Part shown: piece after piece, positions 914-10,900 of the stretch
Numbering within the stretch: position 1 is the first letter of the stretch
Layout of the letters: each line of letters begins with the position of its first letter
DNA from: Bacillus sp. (in: firmicutes)
GTDB taxonomy: Bacteria > Bacillota > Clostridia > Lachnospirales > Lachnospiraceae
DNA length: 36,405 nucleotides
Assembly (NCBI GenBank): GCA_023666125.1
Contig: JAMPCN010000019.1
Location: forward strand, 1-36,405
Direction: 5' to 3'
Made by a program: the position numbers and the translations under genes
The notes under the pieces: model-generated
The model's input: the letters and a program-made list of their open reading frames with translations, nothing else
What the model was told of the DNA's origin: nothing
Databases searched by the model: none

Positions 914-942
914 TTGATTCCTCCGTTGTTTCATTATTACAT

Positions 943-967
943 AAAAAAGTGGACTTGCCAGTCCACT
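943..967 (-). terminator. Intrinsic terminator in the rimP-nusA leader
   Basis: Read on the minus strand there is a perfect 8-bp stem, AGTGGACT/AGTCCACT, with a GGCA loop, followed at once by six T. It sits about 25 nt after the expected transcription start of the rimP promoter (998-1026) and 30 nt before the rimP start codon. It can therefore only end transcripts before they enter rimP-nusA. NusA stimulates intrinsic terminators, and NusA-dependent autoregulation in the leader of the homologous operon is known from Bacillus subtilis. That this hairpin works in the same way is inferred. Confidence 0.75.
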
Positions 968-997
968 CTTATCGTAAATACTATTTATGACTATTAC

Positions 998-1026
998 AGT
1001 GTAGCACTAAATTGGAAGAGATGCAA
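998..1026 (-). promoter_or_regulatory. Sigma-A-type promoter for rimP-nusA
   Basis: On the minus strand TTGCAT (1021-1026) is separated by 17 bp from TACACT (998-1003). The -10 box is preceded by TGC, giving an extended -10. It points towards rimP and is back to back with the tRNA-Glu promoter on the plus strand. The -35 box is weak (3/6), so the call rests on the extended -10, the spacing and the location. Confidence 0.55.
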
Positions 1027-1068
1027 GCAAAAGTAAACGTTTTTCCTGAAAAAAATTTAAAAAAGGGC

Positions 1069-1097
1069 TTGCAATTTGCATAAATCTATAATAGAAT
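1069..1097 (+). promoter_or_regulatory. Promoter of tRNA-Glu
   Basis: TTGCAA (1069-1074) and TAGAAT (1092-1097) are spaced by exactly 17 bp on the plus strand. The tRNA begins 19 bases after the -10 box, a usual distance for a short 5' leader. An overlapping TATAAT at 1087-1092 has no -35 at normal spacing. Confidence 0.6.
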
Positions 1098-1116
1098 AAG
1101 CAAGTGTCCAGTATAT

Positions 1117-1188
1117 GGCTCGTTGGTCAAGCGGTTAAGACGCCGCCCTCTCACGGCGGAAACAGGGGTTCGATTCCCCTACGAGCTG
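1117..1188 (+). tRNA. tRNA-Glu (anticodon CTC)
   Basis: The sequence folds into a complete cloverleaf. The acceptor stem is GGCTCGT (1117-1123) with ACGAGCT (1181-1187) and the discriminator base is G1188. The D arm contains GGTCAAGCGGTTAAGA. The anticodon stem CCGCC/GGCGG holds loop CTCTCAC, giving anticodon CTC at 1150-1152 (Glu, codon GAG). The T arm contains GGTTCGATTCC. CCA is not encoded. It is the only clear plus-strand gene, lying between the rimP promoter and the toxin-antitoxin island. The 71 bases between it and the toxin stop codon hold only weak AT-rich inverted repeats and no gene. Confidence 0.93.
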
Positions 1189-1259
1189 CTGACTGTTTAT
1201 TTTTAAACGAACAGCCCAACCCGAAAAGATGCTGAAAAATTTAGGTTTTTTGGCATTTT

Positions 1260-1790
1260 TTATTTTGTTGGAATCATTTCTGATTTGTTGATATTAGATA
1301 TAGTGATTTCTAGCTCATTATGAAAATATTGTAGTGTTGAATATCCATATATACGTTCAAATTCTCTTTTATCATATTTTACGGCTCTCCCCATTAAATA
1401 ATTTACATAATTATCAATATACTGTTGCGCATCATTTTTTATATATTCTATATTGTTCCGTGTTTCATTAAACTCATCCTTATCTATAATGGCATCTGTA
1501 GACCCTATATATTCTTTGTTTGTAATTATTACAATTTTACTATAATCTAAGCCGGAACTTGTTTTTTTAGAACGGATACTATTTTTAAACTTAAAAGCAT
1601 ATTTATGACTAATATGACTTCTATATGGAATACAAATAAAATAGCCATAATGTGACTGCACTAATAAACAATTATATGGTCTACTATTTTTTCTGACAAT
1701 TTCTTTATATGGCGGATCTGGATAATCAGAATAAAATTTATTTGTTAAATTTAATATCTGATAATCAAAAGAATCTTCTTTAAAACACAT
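1260..1790 (-). CDS. Type III toxin-antitoxin toxin, TenpN/ToxN-like endoribonuclease
   Basis: A 176-residue AT-rich protein whose pattern matches TenpN-type toxins as I know the family: SRPYNCLLV (about residues 36-44), a basic patch IPYRSHISHKYAFKF (about 54-68), SGLDYSKIVII (about 79-89), EYIG, then a C-terminal helix region ending in YGYSTLQYFHNELEI. Toxins of this family are small RNases that cut cellular RNA and their own antitoxin RNA and are held inactive in an RNA-protein complex. The start ATG 1790 has AAGGAG six bases upstream, directly after a terminator. Upstream lie two 51-nt tandem repeats (1837-1938) forming covarying pseudoknots and a promoter, the canonical layout. The base composition is much more AT-rich than the neighbours, suggesting transfer. 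The family call is by remembered pattern; the genetic layout is read directly. Confidence 0.82.
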   Translation of the reverse strand: MCFKEDSFDYQILNLTNKFYSDYPDPPYKEIVRKNSRPYNCLLVQSHYGYFICIPYRSHISHKYAFKFKNSIRSKKTSSGLDYSKIVIITNKEYIGSTDAIIDKDEFNETRNNIEYIKNDAQQYIDNYVNYLMGRAVKYDKREFERIYGYSTLQYFHNELEITISNINKSEMIPTK

Positions 1791-1803
1791 GATATCTCCT
1801 TAG

Positions 1804-1830
1804 TAAAAATGGGAGAGCGTTTGCCCTCCC
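1804..1830 (-). terminator. Rho-independent terminator between antitoxin RNA and toxin gene
   Basis: Read on the minus strand, GGGAGGGC pairs with GCTCTCCC (8 bp with one G-U) around a four-base loop and is followed by ATTTTTACTA. It lies after the second antitoxin repeat and 13 bases before the toxin ATG, so most transcripts should end as antitoxin RNA and only read-through makes toxin mRNA. This placement is typical of type III systems. Confidence 0.85.
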
Positions 1831-1836
1831 ACAATT

Positions 1837-1938
1837 CTCATCACTCGGTTACTTTTATTTTACCGTTGAGTCAGAACCGTCACTCAACTCATCGCTCTGT
1901 CACTTTTATTTTACCGTCCTGTCAGAACAGTCACAGGA
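1837..1938 (-). repeat. Two 51-bp tandem direct repeats
   Basis: The units begin at 1837 and 1888 and are 41/51 identical with no gaps. The invariant parts are the boundary CTCAT and the A/T-rich core (plus strand CTTTTATTTTACCGT). The substitutions are concentrated in predicted stem arms. Confidence 0.9.
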
Positions 1939-1943
1939 CTCAT
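1837..1943 (-). ncRNA. Type III antitoxin RNA, two tandem pseudoknot repeats
   Basis: Two direct repeats of exactly 51 nt (1837-1887 and 1888-1938) plus a third copy of the boundary pentamer (1939-1943). On the minus-strand RNA each repeat forms a 7-bp stem (GTTGAGT/ACTCAAC in one, GTCCTGT/ACAGGAC in the other). Its loop then pairs with a downstream 5-nt element (CGGTT with AACCG; CTGTT with GACAG using one G-U) across an A-rich 14-nt loop, giving an H-type pseudoknot. Nine of the ten differences between repeats fall in these stems and all keep pairing. The RNA is expected to be cut into single pseudoknots by the toxin and to bind and inhibit it. It is preceded by a promoter at 1980-2008 and ended by the terminator at 1804-1830. 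Confidence 0.87.
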
Positions 1944-1979
1944 ATTGTGATGAAGAAACCCTTAAGATTTCCTACTTAT

Positions 1980-2008
1980 AATATACCTAAACTCAGGAAA
2001 ATATTCAA
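1980..2008 (-). promoter_or_regulatory. Promoter of the antitoxin RNA/toxin operon
   Basis: On the minus strand TTGAAT (2003-2008) and TATATT (1980-1985) are separated by exactly 17 bp. The expected start near 1973 lies about 30 nt before the first antitoxin repeat. No repressor operator is obvious. Confidence 0.65.
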
Positions 2009-2061
2009 TAGGAAAATCGTAAAATTTTTATTAATTCCCAGCTTCCTCATTTTCTTCCCCC

Positions 2062-2796
2062 TCACGACCCCACAATCGTTCCCCCGTTCGGGTGAAGCAC
2101 CTGTCCGGTCATATAACTGGAATCGTCCGATGCCAGAAATACATAACAGGGAGAAACTTCACATGGCTGTCCGGCTCTGTCCATCGGCACATGCGACGTT
2201 TTCTTGCCGAATGTGGCGACCTCTGCCGCCGAATATGATGCCGGAATAAGCGGCGTCCATATCGGACCGGGCGCCACTCCGTTTACCCTGATGCCCGCTT
2301 CTGCAAGCGACAAAGAAAGCGACTTTGTCAACGCCACGATTGCCCCTTTTGTCGCGCTATAATCAATTAAATCTTTATTTCCCTGATAGGCGGTTACGGA
2401 AGTCGTATTGATAATGCTCCCGCCCTTTTTCATATAGGGCAGCGCATACTGAATTAAATAGAAAAAAGAAAACACGTTATTTTTGAAAGTAAATTCCAAC
2501 TGCTCATGCGATATATCCAGAATACTGCGCTGGATAAACTGAACGGCATGGTTATTGACTAAAGTATCCAGCCCTCCGAACTGTTTTATGGTTTTTTCTA
2601 CACAGTGTCTGGCAAAACCGGGGTCTTTTAAATCCCCGCACATAAAAAGTGACCTGCCTCCCAGCTCCTCTATCCTCTTAGCCGTTTCCATCGCGTCTAC
2701 TTCTTCGTCATAATAGACAATCGCAACCGCCGCTCCCTCCTTTACAAAATCATAAGCGACGGCTCTGCCGATTCCGCTGTCACCGCCCGTAATCAA
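2062..2796 (-). CDS. Short-chain dehydrogenase/reductase, YdaD/Gsp39-like, 5' end frame-damaged
   Basis: A classical SDR core: TGGDSGIG nucleotide-binding loop at the very start, NNHA in place of the usual NNAG/NNAA (about 81-84), catalytic Ser133, Tyr146 and Lys150 (TTSVTAY, YSATK), then GVAPGPIWTPLIP and the family's end GQVLHPNGGT. Relatives of the Gsp39/YdaD type are near 290 residues with an N-terminal extension. Here the open frame can only begin at TTG 2796, inside strand beta-1. The missing residues (KLENKVAL) are in frame upstream of it but blocked by a TGA, while another frame starting at ATG 2870 reads up to the same point. One lost base near 2815-2825 would explain this, so the gene may be a recent pseudogene or a sequencing error. 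The substrate is unknown. Confidence 0.75.
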   Translation of the reverse strand: MITGGDSGIGRAVAYDFVKEGAAVAIVYYDEEVDAMETAKRIEELGGRSLFMCGDLKDPGFARHCVEKTIKQFGGLDTLVNNHAVQFIQRSILDISHEQLEFTFKNNVFSFFYLIQYALPYMKKGGSIINTTSVTAYQGNKDLIDYSATKGAIVALTKSLSLSLAEAGIRVNGVAPGPIWTPLIPASYSAAEVATFGKKTSHVPMDRAGQPCEVSPCYVFLASDDSSYMTGQVLHPNGGTIVGS

Positions 2797-2901
2797 AGCG
2801 ACCTTGTTTTCCAGTTTACCGCATCTTTTTCCTCATCCGTCATACAATGATATTGATTCCAAAAATTCATCCTAACATACTCTCTGTCAGTGTTTTCTAT
2901 A

Positions 2902-3807
2902 TCATATGCTATACATTTCCCGCTGTGTTACCGTTTCCTGTCCGGAACCGTCTGTCCGGATTCTATACGGCATTCCGCCTTTATAATAATAAATCCAGTC
3001 GTCCACCACTTTCACTACCTCATAATAATAATCGCACACGCCGTCCAGTTCCATCTGTTCGGAGCCGTCTCTTCTGGCTTTCATCAAACGATTTGTGACA
3101 TAGTAAATCCAATCGTTATCTCCTATGTCTTTGCATACGATTTTTTCATAGCCGTCCGCCGGCTCTCCTAACTCCATTTTAAATGTGCCGCAATCCACCC
3201 AGCCGTCCACTACTTTATATCTAAAATGGGATGCGCTGATGTCGTCTGCTCCCGATACTTCATAAGCGGCAATCATATTATCGGAACCATCCAGATTCAT
3301 TCTATGCAGCGCATGTCCTTCCAGCCCTACCCCATAGGTATCATGCCTATAGGTATAGTAAATATATTTCTCATCTACAATTTGAAAATCAAACAGTTCA
3401 TCCTCTAACATTCTTGTATTTTTTCCATCCGGCTCCGATACATATAATTCTCCGTGGTCTTGAAACGCAATGATGGAATTTAAGTAATATACATAACCGC
3501 CTGCAACTTCATAGGTATAGCATGAACCCTCGGTCACACGTTCCGCCATACGTTCATTCTCTTTATATCTGCATAAAACCGGAGAGGATATCTCACCGTC
3601 ATAATAATCCTGCATATATCTGAAATAGACCCATCCCCCTGCTTTTTTCTCATCTATGATATCTTCCTCGGAAAGACATATTTTCTCTCCATCCATACCA
3701 ATAACAACAATGTCTGCCGCATTCTGCTGCATAATCCGCCATCCGGGTTCCATACCGGCAAAAGCCATAGCAACAGCCAACATTGCCGCGAACATTTCAC
3801 TTTTCAT
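2902..3807 (-). CDS. Exported DUF5050-like repeat protein
   Basis: 301 residues with a short N-terminal hydrophobic stretch (FAAMLAVAMAFAGM) that could be a weak signal peptide or anchor. Repeated motifs follow of the kind seen in DUF5050 beta-propeller-like proteins: WVYFRYMQDYYDG, YVYYLNS, YIYYTYR, LHRMNLDGSDN, WIYYVTNRLMKARRDGSE, WIYYYKGGMPYRIRTDGSG. Such proteins pair a 'residue displayed' strand with a following xRxxxDGS turn. The function is not known. The start ATG has GAGG upstream. It follows the phosphodiesterase gene by 38 bp and may be co-transcribed with it. The DUF assignment is by repeat pattern only. Confidence 0.65.
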   Translation of the reverse strand: MKSEMFAAMLAVAMAFAGMEPGWRIMQQNAADIVVIGMDGEKICLSEEDIIDEKKAGGWVYFRYMQDYYDGEISSPVLCRYKENERMAERVTEGSCYTYEVAGGYVYYLNSIIAFQDHGELYVSEPDGKNTRMLEDELFDFQIVDEKYIYYTYRHDTYGVGLEGHALHRMNLDGSDNMIAAYEVSGADDISASHFRYKVVDGWVDCGTFKMELGEPADGYEKIVCKDIGDNDWIYYVTNRLMKARRDGSEQMELDGVCDYYYEVVKVVDDWIYYYKGGMPYRIRTDGSGQETVTQREMYSI

Positions 3808-3845
3808 ATGATTTTTTCCTCTTTCCTCTTAACGCAAAACTAAAA

Positions 3846-4574
3846 TTATATTCCCATCTTCCCCATAATCCCGTCCGCGTCCACGCCGGGATGCGTCAGA
3901 TATAAACGGCAGATTTGCGCTGTCAGCTCCTCACTGATATTTAATTTAGCCGCAATTTCCGCCACCGCTTTTCCCCTGTTCGTTTCCCTCATTACCGTAT
4001 TAATAATCTGCTTAATATTTTCCGGTATTTTTTCGTTTTCCAAATTATCTGCGCCGGAAGTTTTGGAATCTCCGGAAGCTTCAGACGTACCAAAATCGCC
4101 GGAAACACCCGCAGCCGCTTGATGCGGTATGTCTATTTTCGTTATCTGAAAAGAAGCGTCGTCCGCTATCTCTAATAAAGCCATCGTCACGGGCTGGGTA
4201 AAACGCCTTGGACCACAGCTTCCCGGATTTAGGAAAAAACGCCCGTCAACATGCTTTTCCTCATATTTATGGGAATGTCCGTAAATGACGATGTCAACAT
4301 CATTTAATCCTTTCGGGATATCCTTTTTATTATGCACAATAAAAAAACGAACGCCGTACAATACCAAAGAAAGTGACTGCGGCAGGTTTTTCGCCCACTC
4401 TTTATCGTTGTTTCCCCGTACCGCATAGACCGGCGCTGTTTTTTGTAATTCATCCAGTATTTTCTGCTTGTTGATATCTCCGCCATGCACAATCGCATCA
4501 CAACCGCTAATCGCTGCTGTCACTTCCGGGCGCAGCAAACCGTGCGTATCCGATATAACCGCTATCCGATGCAC
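3846..4574 (-). CDS. YfcE/MJ0936-type metallophosphoesterase with C-terminal extension
   Basis: Calcineurin-like phosphodiesterase of the YfcE class, expected to use two metal ions. Metal-ligand motifs occur in order: DTHG (residues 9-12), HGGDI (about 30), GNND (about 54-57), HGHSH-type segment YGHSHKYE (about 97-104) and NPGSCGPRR (about 116). The family is usually about 155-185 residues; this one has 242. A low-complexity Ser/Gly/Ala linker (about 155-180) joins the core to a C-terminal helical module (AVAEIAAKLNISEELTAQIC) that resembles a small helix-turn-helix. The GTG start at 4574 has GAGGG seven bases upstream. The cellular substrate is not evident. Confidence 0.82.
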   Translation of the reverse strand: MHRIAVISDTHGLLRPEVTAAISGCDAIVHGGDINKQKILDELQKTAPVYAVRGNNDKEWAKNLPQSLSLVLYGVRFFIVHNKKDIPKGLNDVDIVIYGHSHKYEEKHVDGRFFLNPGSCGPRRFTQPVTMALLEIADDASFQITKIDIPHQAAAGVSGDFGTSEASGDSKTSGADNLENEKIPENIKQIINTVMRETNRGKAVAEIAAKLNISEELTAQICRLYLTHPGVDADGIMGKMGI

Positions 4575-4590
4575 TTATCATCCCTCTTTT

Positions 4591-5436
4591 CTATAATGTG
4601 ATTGTCGCTCCTGCTGCAATCTCATAAGCCTTTCCCTCTGACTCCATCCAGACCGTTTTCAGCGAGGGATTATATACCCTGCTGCCATCCGCGGAATAGA
4701 CAAGGCTTTGATATGCCGTCACATAATCGACTATCTCGCCATTTGTCGCCATCCAAATGACGTCGGCATATTTTGCAAGATAAGATAAAAGACTTTCCAT
4801 AATCTCCCAGTTATCATGTCTGTCAAACTCAAAGGAATGCCCCCATACATAGAATAACTGCGGCCCCATAAAAGGCGCATCCTGTTCGCAAAACTGTTTC
4901 GCCAGCTCCATCAGGCATGCGTCCTCATGATGGCAAGTCGGGTGCCATTCCAGGAAATTTTTTGGCAGCGCAAAAGAACCCGTCGATGTTACGGTACGGG
5001 CATAGCGGATGCCCGCCGCTTTTAACATGGCAAAGCTTTCCTTATCGTAAATGCCAAACGGATAGGCATGTCCTGTCACCATATAGGGAACAAACCCCTC
5101 CAAAACCTTTCGGTCTTCCAAAATCTGACACAGCGCCGCGCTTCCACAGTCCGTCACGGCAATATGCTCTGCGGTATGCGTCGCCACCTCATGGCGTTCA
5201 TAAAGGCTGGCGATTTCTTCGGCGGCAATCGTGGAATCATCCACTTCTTTTCCGTCAATGACAACCGTTTTTACGCTGCCTAAACGTGCGGAATTCAAAT
5301 TAAACGTTCCTTTTGCGCCGTAGCGGTTCATAATTTCCACAAGATGACGGTCGCCTAAACGGCCGTCATCATAGCTGAATGTCAATGCCTTTCGTTTTTT
5401 CTTTGGAAAAAGCATGGTATGAATCTTAAATGCCAC
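4591..5436 (-). CDS. Polysaccharide deacetylase (NodB-fold) family protein
   Basis: 281 residues. Motif 1 is TFSYDDG (about 19-25) with the catalytic Asp/metal Asp pair. Motif 2 is THTAEH (about 86-91) with two metal His. A YPFG stretch (about 125) stands for the motif-3 region, and WGHSFEF near residue 198 gives the late His. Enzymes of this fold remove N- or O-acetyl groups from cell-wall or exopolysaccharide sugars. No signal peptide or membrane segment is seen, so it may act inside the cell or on a small soluble substrate. The GTG start follows GGGGGA. It sits 17 bp after the PsiE-like gene and 16 bp before the phosphodiesterase, consistent with one small operon from the promoter at 5961-5989. 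Confidence 0.82.
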   Translation of the reverse strand: MAFKIHTMLFPKKKRKALTFSYDDGRLGDRHLVEIMNRYGAKGTFNLNSARLGSVKTVVIDGKEVDDSTIAAEEIASLYERHEVATHTAEHIAVTDCGSAALCQILEDRKVLEGFVPYMVTGHAYPFGIYDKESFAMLKAAGIRYARTVTSTGSFALPKNFLEWHPTCHHEDACLMELAKQFCEQDAPFMGPQLFYVWGHSFEFDRHDNWEIMESLLSYLAKYADVIWMATNGEIVDYVTAYQSLVYSADGSRVYNPSLKTVWMESEGKAYEIAAGATITL

Positions 5437-5453
5437 GATACTTCCATCCCCCT

Positions 5454-5897
5454 TTAATCGTCAACTAACGGCTCGTCATCAGAATCCCCGCCGTCTTCTT
5501 TATAGTCTTTTAACCTTGTATTGTGCAGATATCGGCGAAGCACACACAAAAGAATAATGCTGATGACCGATACAAAATCTTCGTATGGCGTCGTTTCGCT
5601 TACTATCATATGCCGTGCCACCAAAAATATCAGCACTTCCATAATGTTGTCCGAATTAGGACGGCATAACATTTGTAAAAATTCCAGCCCGATAACGATA
5701 ACAAAGATATCTTCCAGATAACCGCGAAACATCGAAACATCATTTAACAGATTCTTGAAAACGACAAAGTCTTTCACCAGACTGTATAAGGAAAATACAA
5801 CACCGACCAGCACAAGAACCGCCACTGCCTGTTCCAGTATATCGCTGACCGACTGTATAAATTTTTTGAATTTCTGCATTGCTCTCTCCATCTTCAT
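5454..5897 (-). CDS. Small four-helix membrane protein, PsiE-like
   Basis: About 147 residues with four predicted membrane segments (AVAVLVLVGVVFSLYSLV, the IFVIVIGLEFLQML segment, VLIFLVARHMIV, FVSVISIILLCVL) and a charged acidic tail. The ARHMIV segment after the third helix and the overall size match the phosphate-starvation-inducible PsiE family, whose molecular function is unknown. I chose ATG 5897 because GGGAG sits eight bases upstream. An earlier GTG (5915) and a later ATG in the same frame are possible. It is first in the group running to the DUF5050-like gene and has its own strong promoter. Confidence 0.65.
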   Translation of the reverse strand: MKMERAMQKFKKFIQSVSDILEQAVAVLVLVGVVFSLYSLVKDFVVFKNLLNDVSMFRGYLEDIFVIVIGLEFLQMLCRPNSDNIMEVLIFLVARHMIVSETTPYEDFVSVISIILLCVLRRYLHNTRLKDYKEDGGDSDDEPLVDD

Positions 5898-5960
5898 ATA
5901 TCCCGCTCCCGTCACCTGATATTGTCCTACAGATAATCTGCACTCCTAAACTTTCTAGTT

Positions 5961-5989
5961 ATTATAGCAAATTCTACCTGTTTTTCCAA
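5961..5989 (-). promoter_or_regulatory. Sigma-A promoter for the PsiE-like operon
   Basis: TTGGAA (5984-5989) and a perfect TATAAT (5961-5966) on the minus strand are 17 bp apart, with TGC before the -10 box. The transcript would carry a leader of about 55 nt before ATG 5897. Confidence 0.8.
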
Positions 5990-6037
5990 TACTTTTAGGG
6001 AAGATGACGAAAGCGGGAAAATAATGCCTGCCGCCTT

Positions 6038-7864
6038 TTAAGACGCGGTGGGAATTAACAGTACCTGACCGATATTTAACAGATTGCCGCTTAGTCCGTT
6101 CAGGCTCTTAATCGCGTCCACCGTTGTGCCATACCTTTGCGCCAAAAGCCACAGCGTATCGCCGCTGCGGACAGTATACTCAAAATAAGAAGGATTGGAA
6201 CCTGTCGGTATTTTTAATACCTGGCCGATATTTAACAGATTGCCCGTCAGCCCGTTTAACCTCTTAATGGCATCCACTGTTGTGCCAAATCTTTGCGCCA
6301 AAAGCCACAGCGTATCGCCACTGCGGACGGTATATTCCATTACGCCGCTGCCTCCGCTTCCACCCGCACCGGGTACATTATTTTCAATACCGAGATAGCT
6401 CTGATATAACGCCTGCCAGGTGGATGGGCCGACGATGCCGTCCGCTGTAAGCTGCGCCGCCCTTTGAAAAGCTATGACCGCCTGCTGCGTTCCCGTTCCA
6501 AAGATGCCGTCCTGCGTTACGCCCGGCACGGTCGGGTAATATTCCGAGATTTGACTTAACAGATATTGCAGGGTAAGCACATCCGCCCCTCTTGACCCCA
6601 TCCTCAATATGGAAGTCGGGGGAACCGTTCCGATGCCAAGCGTCGTTCCCTCGCTGTCAAGTTCGGCTAATCTGGTAACCGCCGCATATACCTCAGAAAG
6701 CTTATACCATGTCGCTTTGCCGACGATGCCGTCCGCCCCCAGCCCGAAAATACTTTGGAATTTTATGACCGCGGCACGCGTGCTGTTTCCGAAAACCCCC
6801 GTTTCATCCGTAATAGCGGGAATCGCCGGATAATTATTCCGTATCCTGTTCAGATAAGTCTGCACCGTCTGCACATTAAGCCCCGTACTGCCGACTCTGA
6901 GCGGCGTTCCCGGATAAGATGAGAGTATTCCCGTAACGGCGTCCGTTTCCACAATTTCAATATCATCAGGATAATAGGTGCGTAAAATCTGTATCGGGGT
7001 CAGTCCGCGCTGCGCCAATGTCACCGTTCCCCACTGGGAAAGCCCCGCACAGGTCGTTGTCGTGCCGTTGCAAAACGATGTAAAATAAGGCGCGTTCTGT
7101 CCTCTCCGCCTCACATACTCGTTAAAAATATCGTCCACCACTCTGTTGATGGACTCATAGATTGGCCGCCCGTATACAAAATACTGATCATAAGCGGTAG
7201 AATTGGTAATATCGAAATCATAGCCACGGCTTCTGTACCACTCCGTAAAAACCCTGTTTAGGGCAAACGTAATAATCGCATATATATTGGCACGCAAGGA
7301 AGCTTCCGGCCATGTCGGGTATATCTCGCTGCTGGCCACGTTTTTGACATAATCGGGAAATGATACCTGCACATTGGCTGCATAAGAAGCAGGTGCGCCC
7401 AGATGCACCGTAATCGGCTCGGGAATAACGACTTGCCGTAAGATACGAGGTTCCGCGACGGGTTCCTCCTGATACCGCCCCTGACGCATGGCTGCTGCGG
7501 GTCTGCCGATAACAATTTCCGTTGTCTCGGGCGCACGCTGCATACTCTGCATCGGTATTAGCGTAACCGGTAAAACCGCCGTTTCCCCCTCATATATCGG
7601 GATGCCGGAAACATGAACGGAATCAAACCCCGCCCTCCTTGCGAGTACGCCATAACTGACATAGGGTTCTCCCGCATAATAGGAATCCAAAGAAAGCCCC
7701 TTTGCCACCGTCTCCAACGATACCATCGGCGTTTCTCCGTCTGCGCCCGTTGTCAGTTCATAGACATTTCGCCCCTCGTCGTCTAAAATCCTGATTTGCA
7801 CATTTGCAAGCGGAACCGCGTCGTGGGCGGTTCTCGCCTGTATGATTAAGTAACCAATCGCCAT
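6038..7864 (-). CDS. Multidomain peptidoglycan-binding protein (carboxypeptidase-regulatory-like, SpoIID-like, 2x PG-binding, 2x LysM)
   Basis: 608 residues. Domains in order: a beta-sandwich of the carboxypeptidase-regulatory kind (about 1-105), a Pro-rich linker, a SpoIID/amidase-enhancer-like region (about 180-310, SEIYPTWPEASLRANIYAI ... FTSFCNGTTTTCAGLSQWG), two PG_binding_1 repeats (about 318-392 and 415-492, with GVFG...TRAAVIKFQ and GIFG...TQQAVIAFQ), a Gly/Ser hinge, and two LysM domains (about 512-555 and 563-608). It has no signal peptide, which suggests a protein made in the mother cell that coats cortex peptidoglycan of the spore, as SafA-type LysM proteins do; this role is inferred. 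The two LysM copies are near identical at DNA level. Confidence 0.85.
   Translation of the reverse strand: MAIGYLIIQARTAHDAVPLANVQIRILDDEGRNVYELTTGADGETPMVSLETVAKGLSLDSYYAGEPYVSYGVLARRAGFDSVHVSGIPIYEGETAVLPVTLIPMQSMQRAPETTEIVIGRPAAAMRQGRYQEEPVAEPRILRQVVIPEPITVHLGAPASYAANVQVSFPDYVKNVASSEIYPTWPEASLRANIYAIITFALNRVFTEWYRSRGYDFDITNSTAYDQYFVYGRPIYESINRVVDDIFNEYVRRRGQNAPYFTSFCNGTTTTCAGLSQWGTVTLAQRGLTPIQILRTYYPDDIEIVETDAVTGILSSYPGTPLRVGSTGLNVQTVQTYLNRIRNNYPAIPAITDETGVFGNSTRAAVIKFQSIFGLGADGIVGKATWYKLSEVYAAVTRLAELDSEGTTLGIGTVPPTSILRMGSRGADVLTLQYLLSQISEYYPTVPGVTQDGIFGTGTQQAVIAFQRAAQLTADGIVGPSTWQALYQSYLGIENNVPGAGGSGGSGVMEYTVRSGDTLWLLAQRFGTTVDAIKRLNGLTGNLLNIGQVLKIPTGSNPSYFEYTVRSGDTLWLLAQRYGTTVDAIKSLNGLSGNLLNIGQVLLIPTAS
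6059..6334 (-). repeat. Tandem LysM-coding repeat, 156-bp period
   Basis: Two in-frame copies of a LysM-coding unit are offset by 156 bp (52 codons). For example the stretch gatatttaacagattgcc occurs at 6071 and 6227. The high DNA identity points to a recent duplication. Confidence 0.85.
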
Positions 7865-7896
7865 AAACTCAAATTTCTCCTTTTTTCCTCTGTTCT

Positions 7897-7902
7897 ATTA
7901 TA
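7897..7902 (-). promoter_or_regulatory. Possible -10 box of the SpoIID/LysM gene
   Basis: The minus strand reads CATATAATA about 30 bases before the start codon. This contains a perfect TATAAT but no acceptable sigma-A -35. It also resembles the -10 of mother-cell sporulation sigma factors (CATA-N2/3-TA). Given the spore-type product, SigE/SigK control is possible but unproven. Confidence 0.35.
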
Positions 7903-7939
7903 TGAAACAAAGAAAAAACGGGAACGGTTACCTTCTTTT

Positions 7940-10900
7940 TTAACTTACAAAATCAAATAGACTAATCTGGTTGGACTCCGGTAAATCTCCCAGTATTCCC
8001 AGCTTGTCCATCAACTCCGTAACTGTTAAAGACACCTTTGCACGTTCACGGAAATCATCTTTTGATAAAAACGGGCCATCTTTTGCCGCTTCCACTACAG
8101 CGTCCGCCGCCTTTTCCCCCATGCCGTCTATGCTGCTTAGAGACGGCATAATCTGTTTATCGTTTACCACCTGGAAAAGCCTTGCCTGCGCGGAAAAAAT
8201 ATCTATCGGTACAAATTCATAACCTCTGGCATACATTTCCTGGACAATTCTCATATCCCGGTAGGAATCCTGTTCTTTTTTGCTGAGTGTATCGCTCCTG
8301 CGCTTATAATCCGCCATAACCTCCTGTAGATGCTGCGGCCCCTGGCACATCAGCTCATAGGAAAAGCCCGAGGCGCGGATGCTGAAAAACGACGCATAGT
8401 AAGCCAGCGGATAATTAATTTTACAATAAGCGATGCGCCACGCCATCATAACATAAGCAGCCGCATGGGCTTTGGGAAACATATACTTGATTTTTTTACA
8501 CGACCAGATATACCAGTCCGGCACATTGGCCGCTAACATCGCTTCCTCCCATTCCGGCTTTAAGCCCTTGCCTTTTCGGACGCTTTCCATAATCGTAAAA
8601 GACAGTGCCGGATCCACTCCCATCTGAATCAGGTAAATCATAATATCGTCACGACAGCAGATTGCCGTGGATATCGTCGCCTTTCCCTCTTCAATCAGAG
8701 TCTGGGCATTTCCAAGCCACACGTCAGTTCCATGCGCCAGCCCCGCAATCCGCACCAAATCCGTAAAGCATTGCGGTTTCGCGTCGATTACCATCTGCAT
8801 GGCAAAATCCGTTCCAAATTCCGGGATGCCAAGGCAGCCTAACTTACAGCCGCCAATCTGTTCCGGTGTAATGCCGAGCGCCTCCGTGGATTTAAAAAGC
8901 GACATCACGCCCTTATCGTCCAACGGAATCGTAACCGGGTCGATTCCCGTAATATCCTGTAACATACGAATCATCGTCGGATCATCATGCCCGAGAATGT
9001 CTAATTTTAACAGGTTATGGTCGATGGAATGATAGTCAAAATGCGTCGTGACAATATCCGTTTTCATATCATTGGCGGGATGCTGTACCGGTGTAAAGGA
9101 ATTAATATCCTCCCCTACCGGCAGTACGACGATACCGCCCGGATGCTGTCCCGTGCTTCTTCTGACCCCGGTGCAGCCCGCTACAATACGGTTGATTTCG
9201 CAGGTTCTTTTCCGCTCCCCGTGGTCTTCATAATAATTTTTCACATACCCGAAAGCCGTCTTATCCGCCAGTGTGCCGATTGTTCCGGCGCGGTATGTCT
9301 GTCCGTAACCGAAAATAACCTCCGTATATTTATGCGCCTTACTCTGGTATTCGCCCGAAAAATTCAAATCAATATCCGGCTCCTTATCGCCTTTAAACCC
9401 TAAGAATGTTTCAAAGGGAATGTCAAACCCCTCTTTTCTAAGAGGCGTTCCACAGTTAGGACAGTTTTTATCCGGCATATCGCAGCCCGCGCCGCCGCTG
9501 TAAGCTTTGACTTCTTCGGAATCAAAATCATAGTAATGGCAGTTCGGACATAGATAATGCGGGCTTAGGGAATTTACTTCCGTAATTCCCGCCATATTGG
9601 CTACAAAAGAAGAGCCGACGGAACCTCTCGAACCTACCAGATAACCATCTTCCACCGATTTCCACACCAGTTTCTGCGCAATGATATACATAACGGCAAA
9701 ACCGTTTGATATAATGGAATGCAGTTCTCTTTCCAGACGGTCTTCCACAATCTTCGGAAGCGTTTCCCCATATATCTCATGCGCCTTTTTATAGCAGATA
9801 TCCGTTAGCTGCTTATCGCTGTCGGCAATGACCGGCGGACACTTATCCGGCCTTACCGGCGACATGGATTCTATCATGTCGGCTATCATATTCGTATTGG
9901 TGATAACGACCTCCTGCGCCTTATCGCTGCCAAGATAGGCAAATTCCTCCAGCATTTCCTCCGTTGTCCTAAAATATAATGGCGCCTGGTTATCGGCGTC
10001 GGCAAAATGCTGCCCCGCCATAATAATACGGCGGTACACTTCATCCTCCGGGTCTAAAAAATGCACGTCGCAGGTAGCCGCTACCGGTTTATGGAACTGC
10101 TCTCCCAGCCTGACAACCTTGCGGTTCATTTCCATAATATCTTCCATGGAATTGATATTCGGTAATTTTTCGGATTCTATCATAAATTGGTTATTGCCAA
10201 GCGGCTGGATTTCCAGATAATCATAAAACTGCACGATTCTGGCAATCTCCGCATTAGATTTACCCTCTAAAAGCGCACGGTATAACTCCCCTGCCTCGCA
10301 GGCGCTTCCTAATATCAATCCCTCCCTGTACTGCTGCAAAAGACTCTTCGGAATCCTCGGCCTTCTGGCAAAATAATTGAGATGGGATTCCGATATTAAA
10401 CGGTACAGATTCATACGTCCCACATTGTTCTTTGCTAAGATAATCGCATGATACGTCGGCAGCTTTTTCACAATATCGGGGCTGGATTTTCCAAGCGCAT
10501 TGACCTTTTGCAGCGTATCCGCGCCCTGTTCGGTAAGCATAGTTATAAATTTCACAAAGATTTCAGCCGTTGCCTCGGCATCATCCACCGCCCTGTGGTG
10601 GTTTTCCAACGATACGCCTAACGTCTTTGCCACGGCGTCCAACGTATGCTTCGCCTGTTCCGGTAAAAGAACCCTCGCAATCCCCACCGTATCGACATAG
10701 GTAAAATCATGGGGAATCTGCATCCTGTCGCAGTTTTCCATGATGAAACTCATATCGAAATTCGCATTGTGCGCCACCAGAACACTCCCTTTGCAAAACT
10801 CCAGAAACTGCGGCAGCACAACGTCAATTTTTGGCGCGTCCACTACCATATCGTCGCGGATGCCTGTCAGTTTTTCAATTTCAAACGGAATAGGCTCTTC

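What the first reader, a model, noticed from the sequence alone, without database searches (positions are those of the whole stretch)
1260..2008. Complete type III toxin-antitoxin locus next to tRNA-Glu, inside the polC/rimP-nusA core region
Four parts stand in the right order on the minus strand: promoter (1980-2008), two 51-nt tandem repeats (1837-1938), terminator (1804-1830), and a TenpN/ToxN-like gene (1260-1790) whose ribosome binding site directly follows the terminator. The protein pattern and the layout each point to type III independently. The island is AT-rich and splits a conserved gene order, so it was probably acquired. Such systems are known for phage defence and plasmid upkeep; which role applies here is open.
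Basis: partly seen in the sequence, partly recalled or inferred. Interest (0 to 1): 0.88.

Follow-up and report, generated by a model that had tools for sequence, protein, structure and literature searches.

The report
TenpIN toxin-antitoxin that phages mimic
A gut bacterium carries a known kind of toxin held in check by a knotted RNA, and viral DNA from elsewhere carries lone copies of the same RNA knot among its tRNA genes, which suggests that viruses use them to disarm such toxins.

Summary
The 176-aa toxin (1260-1790, minus) matches NCBIfam NF047358 at 180.8 bits, cut-off 90. Two 51-nt repeats and a terminator precede it. Over 88 distinct repeats from 72 loci, each repeat is an H-type pseudoknot: 99.6% of 1056 pair cells pair and 7 of 12 pairs change on both sides. 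No Rfam family matches.

It was very probably inserted: a same-genus genome lacks it at the same place. It does not alone split polC-rimP; six other genes lie there and the interval varies in the genus.

The surprise: 25 viral contigs carry the same knot. In 19 it is a single knot beside tRNA genes, and 23 of the 25 records show no TenpIN toxin. Terminase and portal genes lie near one such array. These look like phage-made antitoxin mimics, which argues that this TenpIN lineage is a phage defence. No function was tested. The locus itself is a new member of a known kind.

The parts
1260..1790 (-). TenpN-family toxin gene, 176 aa, predicted endoribonuclease
   Evidence: NCBIfam NF047358 180.8 bits, cut-off 90; E30 K34 R37 P55 R57 H62 G80 D82 K85 V87 E106 Y128 among the invariant residues of 62 aligned proteins, window included
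1809..1832 (-). Rho-independent terminator between antitoxin and toxin
1846..1888 (-). Repeat 2 pseudoknot: stem 1 GUUGAGU/ACUCAAC (1882-1888 with 1865-1871), stem 2 CGGU/ACCG (1876-1879 with 1846-1849), A-rich loop between
1897..1939 (-). Repeat 1 pseudoknot: stem 1 GUCCUGU/ACAGGAC (1933-1939 with 1916-1922), stem 2 CUGU/ACAG (1927-1930 with 1897-1900)
1837..1844 (-). Array end, 3' strand of a possible closing helix (GUGAUGAG)
   Evidence: uncertain,
1947..1954 (-). Leader, 5' strand of a possible closing helix (UUCAUCAC)
   Evidence: uncertain,
1954..1972 (-). Leader hairpin just after the -10 element
   Evidence: in the unconstrained fold of the transcript; leader MFE median z -2.47 over 70 loci against mononucleotide shuffles
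1980..2008 (-). Promoter TTGAAT-17-TATATT
1234..2063 (.). Approximate stretch absent from the empty site of G078
   Evidence: similarity to G078 runs to 1233 and resumes at 2064
1117..1189 (+). tRNA-Glu(CTC), left neighbour

Best explanation
A complete TenpIN-family type III toxin-antitoxin cassette, most likely a phage defence. One promoter makes an RNA of two pseudoknotted repeats; most transcripts stop at the terminator, so antitoxin is in excess, and some read on into the toxin gene. The toxin is an endoribonuclease that cuts its antitoxin precursor into single knots and is held inactive in a complex with them. When a phage stops host transcription the short-lived RNA runs out, free toxin cuts RNA and growth stops. 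Phages answer by carrying their own copy of the knot, made together with their tRNAs. Shown here: family, order of parts, pseudoknot by covariation, insertion, and lone knots with full stems on viral contigs without toxin. Inferred from studied relatives: RNase activity, processing, complex, trigger. Inferred from the viral knots: the defence role and the mimicry.
For: TenpIN profile 180.8 bits, cut-off 90; each of the 62 aligned proteins matches the same profile at E <= 0.01. Repeats, terminator, ribosome-binding site and promoter in order. Pseudoknot: 99.6% of 1056 cells paired (shuffles 84.8%, slid versions 17.6-44.3%), 7 of 12 pairs changed on both sides, 2 of 5 in stem 2. Tandem repeats beyond the best of 20 mononucleotide shuffles upstream of 83 of 93 toxin loci with upstream DNA, window included. 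TenpN against ToxN profile E 2.1e-4, lining up RPY and PYRSHISH with PLSSPKPKH. Viral contigs: 25 carry the knot, 65-82 bits, stem 1 full in 25 of 25, stem 2 full in 22 of 25; 19 have it next to tRNA genes; toxin in 2 of 25 records only. Published precedent: phage PhiTE escapes ToxIN through antitoxin-like RNA (PMC3475682, abstract and passages); TenpIN of Photorhabdus aborts phages (PMC5377504, PMC5449768, passages).
Against: No structure could be predicted. Pfam and PADLOC find no family. hhalign probability against ToxN is 46%; neither profile search of PDB sequences brought up a type III toxin, and the single protein finds CptN only at E 0.081. No expression, toxicity or phage data exist for this locus. 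The viral knots are not shown to be made or to bind a toxin; the records are contigs, possibly fragments, and the hosts are unknown. In PhiTE the wild-type 1.5 repeats do not make a full knot and a single repeat did not rescue. Some published type III systems showed no phage effect (ToxIN of B. thuringiensis; CptIN section heading).
Confidence: 0.93

Rival explanations
1. A decayed type III locus: the parts remain but toxin or antitoxin no longer works.
For: Decayed copies are common: in the window's clade 3 of 9 two-repeat and 3 of 4 one-repeat loci have a cut-short or out-of-frame toxin (tallied by eye, overriding the script's C-terminus flag for L049; Fisher p 0.27). G069 keeps the antitoxin without toxin.
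Against: Here the ORF is full length with the family-invariant residues, both knots pair fully, and terminator, ribosome-binding site and promoter are intact.
Confidence: 0.05
2. A type III system that serves mainly to keep itself or its neighbourhood in the genome (addiction), not phage defence.
For: CptIN stabilises plasmids (PMC4627078, passages); the cassette stands alone between unrelated flanks; relatives occur in 85 plasmid records, all under 60% identity.
Against: Stand-alone knots on viral contigs without toxin are what counter-defence predicts, though they would also disarm an addiction module. The roles do not exclude each other.
Confidence: 0.2
3. The viral knots are leftovers of former toxin-antitoxin loci, or serve another purpose in the tRNA array, not mimicry.
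For: Remnants exist in bacterial genomes (G030, L110); L281 and MT835481.1 have damaged knots; five of the 25 viral contigs hold two or three knots like ordinary loci, and two of these have a toxin.
Against: All 19 knots next to tRNAs keep stem 1 in full and 17 keep both stems in full (L283 and L285 have one mismatch in stem 2), in 7 sequence contexts and without toxin. Several of these contexts share the tRNA-Phe to tRNA-Lys spacer, so the knot has lasted while sequence around it changed.
Confidence: 0.25

Closest known systems
TenpIN family, type III toxin-antitoxin (NCBIfam NF047358; type member in Photorhabdus luminescens)
   Same: Toxin profile, gene order, terminator between antitoxin and toxin, about two repeats of 51-53 nt; a review table lists Fusobacterium tenpIN with 144 aa and 53-nt repeats, 2.1 copies (PMC6315513, passage)
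   Different: Longer toxin (176 aa); the two repeats have different, self-consistent stems; host is an unnamed Lachnospiraceae-like genome
CptIN (Eubacterium rectale, PDB 4RMO)
   Same: Two repeats, H-type pseudoknot with very short first loop and A-rich second loop; toxin cuts its own antitoxin (PMC4627078, passages)
   Different: Only a weak sequence match (E 0.081); CptI is 45 nt, the repeat here 51 nt
ToxIN (Pectobacterium, B. thuringiensis, E. coli)
   Same: Same layout; profile comparison E 2.1e-4
   Different: Window protein does not match Pfam ToxN_toxin; ToxI and antiQ repeats are 34-36 nt in 2.8-5.5 copies (PMC5086642, one section)
Pseudo-ToxI of phage PhiTE
   Same: Antitoxin-like RNA on a phage without the toxin (PMC3475682, abstract and passages)
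   Different: There 1.5 ToxI-like repeats that make no full knot until expanded, in an intergenic locus; here single TenpI-type knots with full stems beside tRNA genes on 19 viral contigs

Membership tests
TenpIN | Toxin matches the family profile over its cut-off | tested here: met
   180.8 bits, cut-off 90
TenpIN | Tandem nucleotide repeats directly upstream | tested here: met
   two 51-nt repeats, beyond shuffles
TenpIN | Rho-independent terminator between repeats and toxin | tested here: met
TenpIN | Antitoxin RNA forms a pseudoknot | tested here: met
   covariation in both stems over 88 distinct repeats; no experimental structure
TenpIN | Single promoter upstream of the repeats | tested here: inconclusive
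   motif not above chance by itself but kept in 11 of 15 close loci; no transcript data
TenpIN | Toxin has the ToxN/Kid-like fold | tested here: inconclusive
   structure prediction off; hhalign E 2.1e-4, probability 46%; no type III hit in PDB profile searches
TenpIN | Toxin is a growth-stopping endoribonuclease neutralised by the RNA | not testable with these tools
   needs kill/rescue and cleavage assays
TenpIN | Phage abortive infection (known for some members) | not testable with these tools
   only indirect: antitoxin knots on viral contigs without toxin
ToxIN | Match to Pfam PF13958 ToxN_toxin | tested here: not met
   no Pfam family up to E 1; no PF13958 match in G000 at 1e-5; 1 of 62 aligned proteins matches weakly, E 0.0013
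CptIN | Clear similarity to CptN | tested here: inconclusive
   4RMO chain at E 0.081, residues 16-89; no CptIN profile among the NCBIfam hits

The most novel reading that the evidence does not exclude
Phages carry single TenpI antitoxin knots inside their tRNA arrays as a counter-defence. The knot is transcribed with the tRNAs, perhaps cut free by tRNA processing, and holds the host's TenpN toxin inactive when the host's own antitoxin runs out. TenpIN loci like the window's would then be working phage defences under counter-selection.
Probability: 0.6. Interest if true: 0.7.

Novelty: new member of a known kind. Interest (0 to 1): 0.5.

Why it matters
The locus itself is ordinary, but it leads to something testable. 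Lone TenpI-type knots lie beside tRNA genes on 19 viral contigs, with no TenpIN toxin found in those records. If they neutralise TenpN, this is RNA mimicry by phages beyond the one studied case that I know of (PhiTE), and it tells which defence the phages meet. The comparison also gives a covariation-backed pseudoknot model for a widespread TenpI lineage that no Rfam family matches. I saw no TenpI structure or tRNA-array mimic in the listings of my searches of the held open-access library; the founding 2012 paper on the family is not held and most listed papers were not read.

Tried and rejected
Rfam at a lax threshold on 1700-2060: 11 matches (lowest E 0.31), none a type III antitoxin. Insertion at the tRNA 3' end: no copy of the tRNA end on the far side, and similarity to the empty site runs past the tRNA. 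tRNA preference of the TenpIN loci found by protein: only 4 of 92 have a tRNA within 400 nt. Repeat loss tied to toxin decay: both loci with a mismatched hybrid repeat (L049, L073) have a disturbed toxin frame, but the count is not significant (Fisher p 0.27). Hot spot at polC-rimP: TenpI material also lies beside polC in G024 and, as a remnant, in G030; P about 7e-4 for 2 of about 20 loci under an assumed 0.2% share, chosen afterwards, so a lead only. Closing helix between leader and array end: I had rated it about even; a fuller check lowered that to about 0.35, because in complete-transcript folds of 62 two-repeat loci the leader pairs mainly with the array end in 32, with the inter-repeat linker in 12 and with neither in 18, and shuffled leaders also pair often (148 of 350 against 64 of 70). 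MAFFT put the helix strands out of register. My first viral pattern scan found nothing because the pattern had one N too many; the mended pattern found 25 contigs. A looser pattern added only L299, a chance match without stems. MT835481.1, a faecal phage record, has a damaged knot of 42.7 bits and no tRNA in the fetched 7 kb; three other searches of the phage collection found nothing.

Full report
What is there. On the minus strand of the window lie a promoter (2008-1980), a leader of about 40 nt, two 51-nt repeats (1938-1837), a terminator (1832-1809), a ribosome-binding site and a 176-aa gene (1790-1260). The repeats are the best tandem pair in the window and far beyond shuffled sequence. 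The terminator region folds far better than 200 shuffles. The promoter motif alone is not above chance, but its spacing and place recur in 11 of 15 close loci.

The toxin. NCBIfam names it TenpIN at 180.8 bits, cut-off 90. Pfam and PADLOC give nothing; PHROG 8049, of unknown function, matches at 2.3e-18. In 77 same-genus genomes the TenpIN model matches 25, over the cut-off 17, and none of 14 control genomes; the window's own genome has one copy. A scan of the GTDB collection found 174 relatives and kept the best 80; their titles are mostly Lachnospiraceae, Oscillospiraceae and other Clostridia, one is titled Synergistales. By protein, 14 viral contigs carry relatives, 85 plasmid records do at under 60% identity, and 2 phage records. 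For an alignment I took 61 relatives whose ORF looked whole and kept a C-terminal motif (68 of 94 passed, 7 near-duplicates left out). With the window, 62 proteins keep E30, K34, R37, P55, R57, H62, G80, D82, K85, V87, E106 and Y128 without exception (also L15, F19 and F156, the last partly by my choice of rows); position 58 is S, T or H (41, 18, 3). Profile comparison with 14 ToxN-family proteins of the same order gives E 2.1e-4, probability 46%, and lines up RPY and the P-x-R-S stretch with ToxN's P-L-S-S. E. coli ToxN has Lys33, Thr52, Ser53 and Lys55 at its active site (PMC8860590, passage). So an RNase of the ToxN kind is likely; the fold is not shown.

The antitoxin. Each repeat forms stem 1 (7 bp), and the loop of stem 1 pairs with a stretch after an A-rich loop (stem 2, 4-5 bp). 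I examined 95 loci (80 genome, 14 viral, the window): 72 carry the motif, in 139 units of which 88 are distinct. Of the 23 others, two had almost no upstream DNA and 21 have toxins at most 41% identical to the window's. On the unfitted MAFFT alignment of the 88, 99.6% of 1056 cells pair; 7 of 12 pairs change on both sides, in 136 cells (shuffled means 4.5 and 46.4); slid structures pair 17.6-44.3%. Three pairs never vary and say nothing; further pair types do not exceed the shuffles (212 of 500); stem 2 changes on both sides at two positions, in 4 sequences each. RNAalifold, which draws no pseudoknots, finds stem 1 by itself. The window's repeats differ from each other in both stems and each pairs with itself, CUGU:ACAG and CGGU:ACCG. 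A simple two-knot search in 20 distant arrays beat all 20 shuffles in 12; in at least four of these the second knot was the terminator hairpin, so this is only a hint.

Leader. The leader before repeat 1 can pair with the array end (UUCAUCAC with GUGAUGAG in the window). Cognate pairing scores 17.7 on average in 71 loci, against 14.3 for non-cognate and 11.4 for shuffled leaders; 1000 permutations of ends did not reach the observed mean. Where array end and linker differ (64 loci) the leader fits the array end better in 33 and the linker better in 11. Against it: in whole-transcript folds of 62 two-repeat loci the leader pairs mainly with the array end in 32, with the linker in 12, with neither in 18; shuffled leaders pair in 148 of 350 folds, real ones in 64 of 70; of six folds printed, L055 and L099 do not show it; on the toxin tree the readable pair agrees in 40 of 43 loci but changes only 3 times, with one independent pair on supported branches, and I set the reading rule after seeing the sequences. 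A leader hairpin is better supported: median z -2.47, 84% of 70 loci below -1.

Place and history. The order is nusA, rimP, tRNA-Glu (opposite strand), TA, SDR, DUF5050, metallophosphatase, polysaccharide deacetylase, PsiE-like, LysM protein, polC. In G078 tRNA-Glu and SDR are adjacent: similarity to the window runs to 1233 and resumes at 2064. Of 19 related loci compared by blastn with the whole window, similarity stays within 1294-2036, counting stray antitoxin fragments in L110. This is what an inserted stand-alone cassette looks like. In 40 fetched regions upstream of rimP, polC was reached in 17, at 0.4 to 8.1 kb; in the other 23 it was not within the fetched stretch, some of which were short. 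G024 carries a divergent TenpIN directly after polC, and G030 has half a repeat, terminator and ribosome-binding site left beside polC. G069 keeps promoter, both repeats and terminator with no toxin in the fetched 3 kb and no TenpIN match in its genome.

Knots on viral contigs. While checking this report I found that my first viral pattern was wrong. The mended pattern, made from the repeat, hits 25 IMG/VR contigs. A covariance model of the repeats (88 distinct units, 5 of them from viral contigs) scores them at 65-82 bits, E 3e-16 to 5e-21. Stem 1 is full in 25 of 25 and stem 2 in 22 of 25 (L281, L283 and L285 have one mismatch). In 19 of 25 the knot is single and next to tRNA genes: 27-29 nt after tRNA-Phe and 128-221 nt before tRNA-Lys in 15, before tRNA-Lys in L288 (held stretch starts too close to see the other side), 36 nt before tRNA-Leu in L280 and L295, 17 nt after tRNA-Gly in L286. 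These 19 fall into 7 sequence contexts and at least three positions among the tRNAs. Arrays hold up to 22 tRNA genes in the held stretch, some a tmRNA; L286 has only two tRNA genes. The TenpIN model finds a toxin in 2 of the 25 whole records (those of L282 and L291, which have three and two knots and serve as positive controls) and none in 23; a record may be a fragment. In the 12 records searched whole with the RNA model, the 10 with tRNA genes have exactly one knot each and two have two. That these are phages rests on IMG/VR's own calls and, here, on terminase and portal genes beside the array in L274, a portal gene in L294, and a head-decoration-like protein and reverse transcriptase in L286. 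Complementary stretches around the single knots exist but are mostly not far beyond shuffled leaders: 10, 43 and 4 of 200 shuffles reach those of L274, L275 and L286.

What it means. Phage PhiTE carries 1.5 repeats like ToxI, which become an effective mimic only when expanded (PMC3475682, abstract and passages). The viral knots here are single but have full stems in 17 of the 19 next to tRNAs, and they sit where tRNA processing could free them. That tRNA processing frees them, that they bind TenpN, and which hosts are infected, are all inferences. If right, TenpIN loci like this one are phage defences under counter-selection. That ToxIN is triggered by phage transcription shut-off is recalled, not from a call.

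Verdict. A complete member of the TenpIN family, new only as a member. How it works is taken from studied relatives (PMC5086642, abstract and three sections; PMC4627078, PMC5377504, PMC5449768, PMC6315513 and PMC8860590, passages). The window's own name is unknown.

Noticed in passing
L274-L280, L283-L289, L292-L296 (viral contigs): Single TenpI-type knots next to tRNA genes on 19 viral contigs, no toxin found in the records; candidate phage antitoxin mimics.
   Followed up: yes
L191 (G069:C5) 1349-1594: Orphan TenpI antitoxin: promoter, two repeats and terminator at 90% identity to the window, then other sequence; no TenpIN match in the genome.
   Followed up: partly
L153 (G030) about 3040-3110: Remnant of a different TenpI lineage (half repeat, terminator, ribosome-binding site) between tRNA-Glu and the end of polC; it may now serve as a polC terminator.
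   Followed up: partly
L075 (G024) 3617-4462: A divergent TenpIN (about 50% toxin identity) directly downstream of polC, the same general place as in the window.
   Followed up: partly
L049 and L073, single repeats at about 3901-3953: Single hybrid repeats (5' part like repeat 1, 3' part like repeat 2) with a mismatch in stem 2; both loci have a disturbed toxin frame.
   Followed up: partly
L110 3113-3148 and 6206-6250: Scattered fragments of TenpI repeat near a decayed TenpIN copy.
   Followed up: no
window 934-7940: The polC-rimP interval is variable across the genus, with tRNA-Glu(CTC) in either orientation.
   Followed up: partly
G001:C43:11232-11298: Weak antitoxin-model match on the opposite strand close behind the TA of G001 (E 5.8e-6).
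   Followed up: no
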